From contig VGQC01000007.1 of NCBI GenBank assembly GCA_016882385.1, positions 1-33,990 on the forward strand: a DNA stretch of 33,990 nucleotides. Direction: 5' to 3'. Both the position numbers and the translations under genes were made by a program. This stretch comes from Cyanobacteria bacterium M_DeepCast_100m_m1_067. Its GTDB lineage: Bacteria; Cyanobacteriota; Cyanobacteriia; PCC-6307; Cyanobiaceae. The notes below the pieces were generated by a model. The model did not search any database and had not been told where the DNA came from. It saw nothing but the letters and a program-made list of their open reading frames with translations. This document shows, piece by piece, positions 22,555 through 25,198 of the stretch (within the stretch, counting starts at the first letter, position 1; each line of letters opens with the position of its first letter).

Positions 22555-23343
22555 ATGTCCACCCGCCCCCAGGCCGTTGTGCTGTTCGACATCGACGGCG
22601 TGATCCGCGATGTGAGCGCCAGCTACCGCCGGGCGATCGTGGAAACGGTGCACCACTACGCCGGCCAGCGGCCTGCGCCCGCCGCCATCGACGCCCTCAA
22701 GAGCGAAGGCTGCTGGAACAACGACTGGGAGGCCTCCCTGGAACTGCTGCGGCGGGCGGGCCACACCCCCCTGCCGGCTTTTGCAGCGCTGGTGGCCGTG
22801 TTCGAAACCTTCTATTTCGGCGGCGATCCCGAGGGCGACCCCAGCCAGTGGCAGGGGTTCATCGGCGACGAGCCGCTGCTGGTGCAGCCGTCTTTCTTTG
22901 CCGCCCTAACGGCGGCAGATCTGACCTACGGCTTCGTCAGCGGCGCCGAACCCCCCTCCTGCCGCTACGTGCTGGAGACCCGGCTGGGGCTCGTGAATCC
23001 GCCCCTGATCGCCATGGGGGATGCGCCCGACAAGCCTGATCCCACCGGCCTGCTACGGCTAGCCGCCCCGCTGGCGGGCGGGCCCCTCGGCGTTGGTGCA
23101 CCGCCGGTGGTTTACCTGGGCGACACCGTGGCTGATGTGCTCACCGTGCAGCGGGCCCGCGCGGCGTTCGCAGAACAGCGCTTCCTCAGCCTGGCGGTGG
23201 CGCCACCACACCTGCACGGGCACCCCGAGGCCCGCACCACCTACGAAGCCAAGCTGCTGGAAGCCGGCGCCGATGCGGTGATCCCCAGCACTGGCCTGCT
23301 CTTGAACCAGCTGCAACGGCTGGATGCCATCAAAGTCCCCTAG
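22555..23343 (+). CDS. HAD-superfamily hydrolase, subfamily IA
   Basis: 262-aa phosphatase-like protein. Motif I VVLFDIDGVIRDVS has the two catalytic Asp residues; motif II FVSGAEPPS contains the Ser; motif III lies around DKPDP; motif IV VVYLGDTVADVLTV carries the Asp pair. It resembles the group sometimes listed as TIGR01548. Substrate unknown. ATG at 22555. A 45-aa ORF in the +1 frame starts inside its last codons (23324) and leads to vapC. Confidence 0.85.
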   Translation: MSTRPQAVVLFDIDGVIRDVSASYRRAIVETVHHYAGQRPAPAAIDALKSEGCWNNDWEASLELLRRAGHTPLPAFAALVAVFETFYFGGDPEGDPSQWQGFIGDEPLLVQPSFFAALTAADLTYGFVSGAEPPSCRYVLETRLGLVNPPLIAMGDAPDKPDPTGLLRLAAPLAGGPLGVGAPPVVYLGDTVADVLTVQRARAAFAEQRFLSLAVAPPHLHGHPEARTTYEAKLLEAGADAVIPSTGLLLNQLQRLDAIKVP

Positions 23344-23461
23344 CTTGCAGGCAGCCGCTGTGATCAGCCTCAATCGCCTGGTTCTACACCGATTAACAGG
23401 GGAGGCCTTCGCAGCAGCCATCGCACCGCTTGAGCAGGTCGACCCAGAGCTCTGGGCCTGA
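23324..23461 (+). CDS. Small ORF upstream of vapC, possible antitoxin (45 aa)
   Basis: ATG at 23324, in the +1 frame of the HAD gene and overlapping its last 20 nt; stop TGA at 23459-23461, only 3 nt before the vapC ATG (TGAGCCATG). The product begins MPSKSPSLQAAAV and continues LNRLVLHRLTGEAF, ending EQVDPELWA. It is too short for a full ribbon-helix-helix or AbrB DNA-binding domain plus tail; it looks like a short toxin-binding helix with an acidic C-terminus. The position is exactly that of an antitoxin, but no recognisable antitoxin family is seen. A degraded antitoxin remnant is the alternative. Confidence 0.5.
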   Translation: MPSKSPSLQAAAVISLNRLVLHRLTGEAFAAAIAPLEQVDPELWA

Positions 23462-23464
23462 GCC

Positions 23465-23875
23465 ATGCGGCCGATTGCGCTCGACACCAACGCTTACGCA
23501 GGTTTTAAGCGGGGCCTACTCCCCTGCGAGGAACTCGTCCAACGTGCCGAAAAGCTGCTGATCAGCAGCACCGTGATCGGCGAACTGCTGGCTGGATTCG
23601 CCTGCGGCAGTCGCGACGCGTGCAACCGAGAAGAACTCAGCCAATTTCTGGCCTCGCCGCGGGTCGAGCACTGCCCTTGCAGCCTCGCCACAGCTGACAC
23701 CTATGCGCTGATTGATCGAGACCTGCGACGCAAGGGCCGGCCCATTCCCACCAACGACATTTGGATTGCCGCCAGCGCCTTGGAGTGGGGAGCCGCCCTG
23801 TTCAGCTTCGACGACCATTTCCAGCAGATCGACGGGCTGCGGATTGTGCAGAGCTGGTCTGAAACCCTGCCCTGA
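23465..23875 (+). CDS. vapC: PIN-domain ribonuclease toxin, VapC type
   Basis: 136-aa PIN domain, the usual VapC length. Conserved acidic residues: Asp7 (ALDTNAYAGF), Glu40 (VIGELLAGF), Asp98 (TNDIWIAASALEWGA) and Asp116/117 (FSFDDHFQQI), a complete active site for Mg-dependent RNA cleavage. The ATG at 23465 is 3 nt after the small upstream ORF. Stops 3 nt before the convergent pepP stop. Toxicity and partner are inferred from the family. Confidence 0.9.
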   Translation: MRPIALDTNAYAGFKRGLLPCEELVQRAEKLLISSTVIGELLAGFACGSRDACNREELSQFLASPRVEHCPCSLATADTYALIDRDLRRKGRPIPTNDIWIAASALEWGAALFSFDDHFQQIDGLRIVQSWSETLP

Positions 23876-23878
23876 GCC

Positions 23879-25198
23879 TCAGCGCTCCAGTGCCGCCGGA
23901 GCCTTGAGCGCTGCAGCGGTGAGGTTCTCGTGGCCGTGGTCGGTGACGGCCACGTCGTCTTCGATGCGGATGCCAATCCCCTTCCAGCGCGCCTCGATCG
24001 CCGGCTGGCCCTCCGGCACCGGCAGCCGGTCGCTCACGTAGAGGCCTGGCTCCACCGTGAGCACCATGCCCGGCTCCAGCTCCACGTGGTGCTCCCCGAG
24101 GCGGTAGGCGCCCACATCGTGCACATCCAGCCCCAGCCAGTGGCCGGTGCGGTGCATGTAGAGGTGGCGGTAGGCGCCCTGCTCGATCACGCCGTCCACC
24201 GAGCCCGCCAGCAGCCCCAGCTCCAGCAACCCTTCCACCAGCACCCGCACGGCCGTGTCGTGCACCCCCTCGGCGGTGAACCCCGGCGCCACGGAAGCCA
24301 CCGCCGCCGCCTGGGCCGCCAGCACCAGCTCATACAGGGCCCGCTGCTCACCGCTGAAGCGGCCGCCCACCGGGAAGGTGCGGGTGATGTCGCCGTTGTA
24401 GTAATCGCCCAGGGAGCAACCGGCGTCGATCAGCAGCAGGTCGCCGTCGCGCAGGGTGGCGTTGTTGGCGGTGTAGTGCAGCACGCAGGCGTTGTCGCCG
24501 CCGGCCACGATCGTGCCGTAGGCCGGGCCGCGGGCGCCCTGCTCTAGGAAGTGCTGCTCGATCACCGCCTGCACCTGGCGCTCGTTGAGGCCGGGCCGCA
24601 CCACCTGACGGGCCAGCTCATGGGCTTCGGCGGAGATGCGCGCCGCCTCCCGCATCCGCTCCAGCTCCTCGGGCCCCTTGCGCAGCCGCAGGTCGTGCAG
24701 CAGGGGGCAGGGGGCCACCAGGCCGAGGGCGGCCGAGCCGCTGCGGGGGGCTCGATCGAGCTGACCGGCCCAGGCCGCCAGCACCAGCGGCTCCACCTTG
24801 GGGTGCCGGCCCACACGGAAGGCGATGCCCTCAGCGCCCGCCAGGTAGTGGGGCAGCCGCTGCTCCAGTTCGCTGCGGGGATGGGCCAGGTCGGCGCCAA
24901 ACGCGGCCACCGCCCCTTCGGTGCCCCAACGGAAACCGTTCCACACCTCGGCGCTGGGCTCCTTGGGGGCCACAAACAACACGAAACGTTCGCCCTCGGG
25001 CCGGTGCGGCAGGAACAGGGCCACCGCCTCCGGCTCATCGAAGCCGGTGAGATACCAGAAATCGCTGTTTTGGCGGAAGGGCCACTCGCAGTCGGCGTGG
25101 TGAACCGCCAACGCCGCCGCCGGGATCACCGCCGCCGCTCCCCCGAGCAGCTCGAAGAAGCGCGCGCGCCGCTGGGCAAAGATCGACGGGTCGAGCAT
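23879..25198 (-). CDS. pepP: Xaa-Pro aminopeptidase
   Basis: 439-aa metallopeptidase of the pita-bread fold that removes N-terminal residues preceding proline. An N-terminal creatinase-like domain (FRQNSDFWYLTGFDEPEAVA) precedes the catalytic part with metal ligands in DLLLIDAGCSLGDYYNGDITRT split in two, HRTGHWLGLDVHDVG, VLTVEPGLYV and GIRIEDDVAVT. ATG at 25198. Divergent from the CNNM-type gene across 108 nt; convergent with vapC. Confidence 0.94.
   Translation of the reverse strand: MLDPSIFAQRRARFFELLGGAAAVIPAAALAVHHADCEWPFRQNSDFWYLTGFDEPEAVALFLPHRPEGERFVLFVAPKEPSAEVWNGFRWGTEGAVAAFGADLAHPRSELEQRLPHYLAGAEGIAFRVGRHPKVEPLVLAAWAGQLDRAPRSGSAALGLVAPCPLLHDLRLRKGPEELERMREAARISAEAHELARQVVRPGLNERQVQAVIEQHFLEQGARGPAYGTIVAGGDNACVLHYTANNATLRDGDLLLIDAGCSLGDYYNGDITRTFPVGGRFSGEQRALYELVLAAQAAAVASVAPGFTAEGVHDTAVRVLVEGLLELGLLAGSVDGVIEQGAYRHLYMHRTGHWLGLDVHDVGAYRLGEHHVELEPGMVLTVEPGLYVSDRLPVPEGQPAIEARWKGIGIRIEDDVAVTDHGHENLTAAALKAPAALER

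What the first reader, a model, noticed from the sequence alone, without database searches (positions are those of the whole stretch)
23324..23875. VapC toxin whose only candidate antitoxin is a 45-aa ORF nested in the HAD gene's 3' end
The PIN toxin has a complete active site. Directly upstream, with a 3-nt spacer, is a +1-frame ORF that starts inside the HAD gene. It lacks room for a DNA-binding domain, so it would be a minimal antitoxin that neutralises without autoregulating, or a decayed relic leaving an orphan toxin.
Basis: partly seen in the sequence, partly recalled or inferred. Interest (0 to 1): 0.6.

Follow-up and report, generated by a model that had tools for sequence, protein, structure and literature searches.

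The report
Deletion-gutted antitoxin beside an intact VapC toxin

Summary
The sequence is as described: a 45-aa ORF (23324-23461), then GCC, then a 136-aa PIN-domain toxin (23465-23875) with D7, E40, D98 and D116 intact. The ORF is not a designed mini-antitoxin. In two same-genus genomes and in 'Vulcanococcus sp. Clear-D1' the same HAD-pepP slot holds an intact 81-aa FitA-like ribbon-helix-helix antitoxin. Against it the window lacks 82 nt (start codon, DNA-binding strand, first helix; lost between two ATCAGCC repeats) and 72 nt (24 codons, including the near-invariant Gly-x-Trp toxin-binding anchor). Together they account exactly for the 121 vs 275 nt spacing. The first 12-13 residues are HAD and spacer DNA out of frame. 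Of 80 toxin relatives, 78 have the antitoxin. Three other broken copies in the family lost or truncated the toxin; here the toxin looks intact and constrained. The 32 surviving antitoxin codons also changed almost only silently, so either the deletions are recent or the stump still helps. I favour a recent relic with a poorly expressed orphan toxin. A working stump (about 0.2) is not excluded and is easy to test. New example of a known kind: decay of a chromosomal toxin-antitoxin locus.

The parts
22555..23343 (+). HAD-type hydrolase gene upstream; its last 20 nt overlap the 45-aa ORF in another frame
   Evidence: PF00702 and TIGR01548 above cut-off
23324..23461 (+). the 45-aa ORF; codons 1-13 are HAD 3' end and spacer read out of frame, codons 14-45 are antitoxin remnant
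23363..23369 (+). joint of deletion 1: ATCAGCC; in L002 two ATCAGCC copies lie exactly 82 nt apart, at 1245 and 1327
23363..23404 (+). remnant of antitoxin codons 26-39 (ISLNRLVLHRLTGE, second helix of the ribbon-helix-helix)
23404..23405 (+). joint of deletion 2: 72 nt, 24 codons, in frame; removes linker and DLxxLAGTWSEEE anchor
23405..23461 (+). remnant of antitoxin codons 64-81 (AFAAAIAPLEQVDPELWA) and stop; keeps family-invariant Asp76 and Trp80
23465..23875 (+). VapC-like PIN toxin gene, 136 aa, active site intact
23879..25198 (-). pepP (M24 aminopeptidase P) gene, the convergent neighbour that fixes synteny
   Evidence: synteny

Best explanation
A decayed type II toxin-antitoxin locus of the VapBC/FitAB kind. 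An intact ancestor, as still seen in relatives, had an 81-aa FitA-like antitoxin, then the PIN toxin, between the convergent HAD and pepP genes. In the window's lineage an 82-nt deletion between two ATCAGCC repeats removed the antitoxin's start codon, strand and first helix, and a 72-nt in-frame deletion removed the linker and the Gly-x-Trp toxin-binding anchor. What is left is readable only because an out-of-frame ATG in the end of the HAD gene happens to be in phase. Shown: the homology, both deletions and their sizes, the intact toxin frame and catalytic residues. Inferred: that the stump no longer represses (no DNA-binding fold) and no longer neutralises properly; that the toxin, which has no Shine-Dalgarno-like site and sits 3 nt after the antitoxin stop, is now poorly translated because the antitoxin's own start is gone; and that the event is recent, so the toxin has not yet decayed.
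For: Syntenic intact antitoxins in G010, G013 and Clear-D1. 82 + 72 nt exactly account for the HAD-stop to toxin-start distance, 121 vs 275 nt, and the 82-nt repeat pair is visible in L002. 78 of 80 toxin relatives from a genome scan carry the antitoxin C-terminal motif directly upstream. Gly55 and Trp57 of the antitoxin are near-invariant in 39 relatives and absent here. In solved VapBC complexes a conserved antitoxin Trp or other aromatics are buried in the toxin (PMC6265470; PMC3384007). The same slot has decayed in other ways in the genus: G015 has the HAD gene fused to antitoxin residues 26-81 with the toxin gone, and G004 has only an antitoxin tail left. No other antitoxin of this family in the window's genome. 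AlphaFold places the 45-aa part only weakly (pLDDT 60-71) next to a toxin at 97 (no intact control was run).
Against: The toxin shows no decay: window-branch omega 0.13, omega 1 rejected (2 dlnL about 6.9), and no clear excess of odd residues over its partnered relatives. The 32 remnant codons also look constrained on the window branch: omega 0.07, omega 1 rejected (2 dlnL 13.1). That fits a recent deletion but also a stump still in use. In other broken copies of the family the toxin is truncated or absent; an intact toxin beside a broken antitoxin is the exception. The poor-translation step is untested, and intact vapB starts also lack a Shine-Dalgarno-like site.
Confidence: 0.7

Rival explanations
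1. Functional stump: the 45-aa (or 33-aa, from GTG 23360) product still binds the toxin through its C-terminal segment AFAAAIAPLEQVDPELWA and neutralises it without autoregulation.
For: The segment keeps the two family-invariant residues Asp76 and Trp80. Remnant codons changed almost only silently: about 14 silent vs 5 replacement differences from L002, omega 0.07. The homologous tail in G015, where no toxin remains, shows omega near or above 1. The toxin is intact. Short VapB11-derived peptides inhibit VapC11 in vitro in a dose range of 10-1000 uM (PMC6265470).
Against: Lost the near-invariant Gly-x-Trp anchor. Lost the RHH strand and first helix, so no antitoxin dimer. No Shine-Dalgarno-like site at ATG 23324, TTG 23345 or GTG 23360 (intact vapB starts lack one too). 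The other copy that keeps the same C-terminal piece, G267, has a truncated toxin. Weak AlphaFold placement. A deletion in the last ~15% of the branch explains the silent pattern equally well (inference).
Confidence: 0.2
2. Assembly or population artefact: the genome is a draft of 162 contigs, about 84% complete, and real cells carry an intact antitoxin.
For: Draft state. The toxin and remnant look constrained.
Against: Two separate clean deletions; the repeat at joint 1 is 7 nt, too short to mislead an assembler; no second copy elsewhere in the assembly; flanks are normal.
Confidence: 0.05
3. The toxin is neutralised in trans by an antitoxin encoded elsewhere in the genome.
For: The genome holds seven other PIN loci over the cut-off and one strong FitA-like RHH elsewhere.
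Against: None of the other PIN proteins examined resembles this toxin, and the antitoxins seen beside them lack its C-terminal motif (which resolved only some of them). No second antitoxin of this family was found. About 16% of the genome is unseen.
Confidence: 0.05

Closest known systems
VapBC / FitAB type II toxin-antitoxin loci with RHH antitoxin (PF22513) and PIN toxin (PF01850); solved FitAB 2h1o/2bsq, VapC 6nkl
   Same: PIN toxin with four acids; relatives have an RHH antitoxin directly upstream with a C-terminal toxin-binding tail
   Different: In the window the antitoxin lacks its start, RHH strand and first helix, and the Gly-x-Trp anchor
Degraded chromosomal TA loci and orphan VapC toxins (reviewed in PMC7354431; noted in M. 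tuberculosis)
   Same: One partner broken or missing while related species keep the pair
   Different: Here the surviving partner is the toxin with an intact active site, and both deletion joints can be mapped

Membership tests
VapC / PIN toxin | PIN domain above Pfam cut-off | tested here: met
   PF01850 42 bits vs 23.6
VapC / PIN toxin | conserved acidic active-site residues | tested here: met
   D7, E40, D98, D116
VapC / PIN toxin | NCBIfam VapC equivalog score (NF047863, NF047959) | tested here: not met
   45 of 140 and 38 of 80 bits; so a relative, not a member of those equivalogs
VapC / PIN toxin | ribonuclease activity, growth arrest | not testable with these tools
   needs an assay
FitA-like RHH antitoxin (PF22513), 45-aa product | ribbon-helix-helix domain | tested here: not met
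   no Pfam hit; strand and first helix deleted
FitA-like RHH antitoxin (PF22513), intact relative L002 | ribbon-helix-helix domain | tested here: met
   27.8 vs 27 bits; L003 scores 22, below the cut-off
FitA-like RHH antitoxin (PF22513), 45-aa product | complete C-terminal toxin-binding tail, GxW...IDxxLW | tested here: not met
   GxW half deleted, IDxxLW half kept as VDPELW
VapBC operon | complete antitoxin gene directly upstream of toxin | tested here: not met
   antitoxin present in L002, L003, L039 and 78 of 80 relatives, not intact in the window

The most novel reading that the evidence does not exclude
A deletion-built minimal antitoxin: a 33-45-residue product with no DNA-binding fold and without the usual Gly-x-Trp anchor still neutralises a PIN toxin through its last 18 residues, leaving an unregulated but viable pair.
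Probability: 0.2. Interest if true: 0.5.

Novelty: new member of a known kind. Interest (0 to 1): 0.3.

Why it matters
It gives a comparative series of how one chromosomal toxin-antitoxin pair is dismantled at one site: intact pair, HAD-antitoxin fusion with toxin lost, bare antitoxin tail, and here toxin kept with antitoxin gutted. The window is the awkward case, because theory says the antitoxin should not go first while the toxin is intact. It makes a simple question testable: is the toxin silent, or is a stump enough?

Tried and rejected
Chance ORF only: rejected as the full account, because residues 14-45 are homologous to syntenic antitoxins, though the frame length itself is ordinary. 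An existing mini-antitoxin family: no relative found keeps only this part with an intact toxin. Toxin decay through odd residues (V22E, Y84D, R53C, M108W): dropped after a control, since the window has 9 such sites and its partnered relatives 8, 6 and 6. Joint antitoxin-toxin alignment A4 was unusable because antitoxin rows aligned onto the toxin. Promoter scan found nothing. No PADLOC defence hit. Possible toxin 3'-end scars after HAD in G012, G001, G005 and G006 rest on about 20 GC-rich bases and are left open.

Full report
Observation. The window reads as described. ATG 23324 opens a 45-codon frame in the +1 frame of the HAD gene (stop 23341-23343). It ends with TGA at 23459-23461, then GCC, then the ATG of a 136-aa PIN protein ending at 23875. 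The PIN domain is above the Pfam cut-off, and the residues that are near-invariant in 85 relatives, including D7, E40, D98 and D116, are all present. AlphaFold folds it at pLDDT 97. A 45-aa ATG frame is ordinary here, so the frame by itself carries no weight.

What it is. Their antitoxin is 81 aa with a FitA-like ribbon-helix-helix start (PF22513) and, in G010, the tail DLDDLAGTWSEEESDAFSAAIAPLEQIDPELWA. The window aligns to it with two gaps. The first removes codons 1-25 with the start codon. In L002 two ATCAGCC copies, one just before the start codon and one at codons 26-28, lie 82 nt apart, and the window has one copy at the joint. The second removes 24 codons in frame. 275 - 82 - 72 = 121 nt, exactly the window's HAD-stop to toxin-start spacing.

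How unusual. A genome-collection scan gave 80 toxin relatives from many phyla; 78 have the antitoxin tail directly upstream, two of them cut by contig ends, and two (L044, L061) have none. Asp76 and Trp80 are invariant and Gly55 and Trp57 near-invariant. The window keeps the first pair and lost the second. In solved VapBC complexes a conserved Trp or other aromatics are buried in the toxin, and residues nearer the antitoxin's C-terminus reach the active site (PMC6265470; PMC3384007). That the residues here play the same roles is inference.

Fate of the locus. A tree of HAD plus pepP scatters the presence of the pair, which suggests an old insertion lost several times; the root and several nodes are uncertain. 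G015 has HAD fused in frame to antitoxin residues 26-81 with the toxin gone. Its sister G004 has a HAD gene ending LDAISQQINPERWP, a scar of the antitoxin tail. G007 and G014 are clean. Elsewhere in the family, G267 has an upstream gene fused to the antitoxin C-terminus with a truncated toxin, G320 a frameshifted antitoxin with an internally deleted toxin, and G284 an N-terminally cut antitoxin with a truncated toxin that has D7G. In that sample the window is the only broken antitoxin beside an intact toxin.

Selection. The 32 surviving antitoxin codons have omega 0.07 on the window branch with omega 1 rejected, while the G015 tail, which has no toxin to neutralise, fits omega 1 or more. Counts: about 14 silent and 5 replacement differences from L002. 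A rough bound from these counts (my estimate) is that the stump was free of constraint for no more than about 15% of its branch. This cannot tell a recent deletion from a stump still in use. Topology and the small number of sites are caveats.

Mechanism. Best reading: a relic. The stump cannot form the RHH dimer, so no autorepression. The toxin start has no Shine-Dalgarno-like site and probably depended on translation of the antitoxin, whose start is gone; ATG 23324 may allow a little coupling from HAD. No related antitoxin exists elsewhere in the 84%-complete assembly, and the antitoxins seen beside its other PIN genes look unrelated. AlphaFold of the read-through stump plus toxin gives the stump pLDDT 60-71 and the toxin 97, weak evidence because no intact control could be run. 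The rival, a working stump, keeps about one chance in five.

Verdict. Ordinary kind, well resolved: decay of a known type of toxin-antitoxin pair, with one open and easily tested point.

Noticed in passing
L024:1495-2439 (minus strand), genome G015: HAD hydrolase fused in frame to antitoxin residues 26-81 at a GCCATCAG joint, toxin gene deleted; the tail evolves near neutrally.
   Followed up: partly
L028 (G004), HAD 3' end: HAD ends LDAISQQINPERWP, a short scar of the antitoxin tail; sister genome of G015.
   Followed up: partly
L124 (G267) around 1414-1704: Upstream gene fused to the same antitoxin C-terminal piece (RFQAAIAPLQQVDPDLWD), followed by a toxin truncated near residue 68.
   Followed up: partly
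L123 (G284): Antitoxin missing its N-terminus at almost the same point as the window, toxin truncated and with catalytic D7 changed to G.
   Followed up: partly
L044 and L061, upstream of 4001: Two homologous PIN genes in other phyla with no antitoxin upstream at all.
   Followed up: no
L120 and L121, just upstream of the antitoxin start: Perfect inverted repeat TGCCAGCA-N5-TGCTGGCA, a likely antitoxin operator; not found before the window stump.
   Followed up: no
L085, L099, L116 (Anabaena and relatives): Antitoxins with the same C-terminal toxin-binding motif but a different N-terminal domain.
   Followed up: no
L037, L038 (G003, G002): HAD gene runs past and overlaps the end of convergent pepP.
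   Followed up: no
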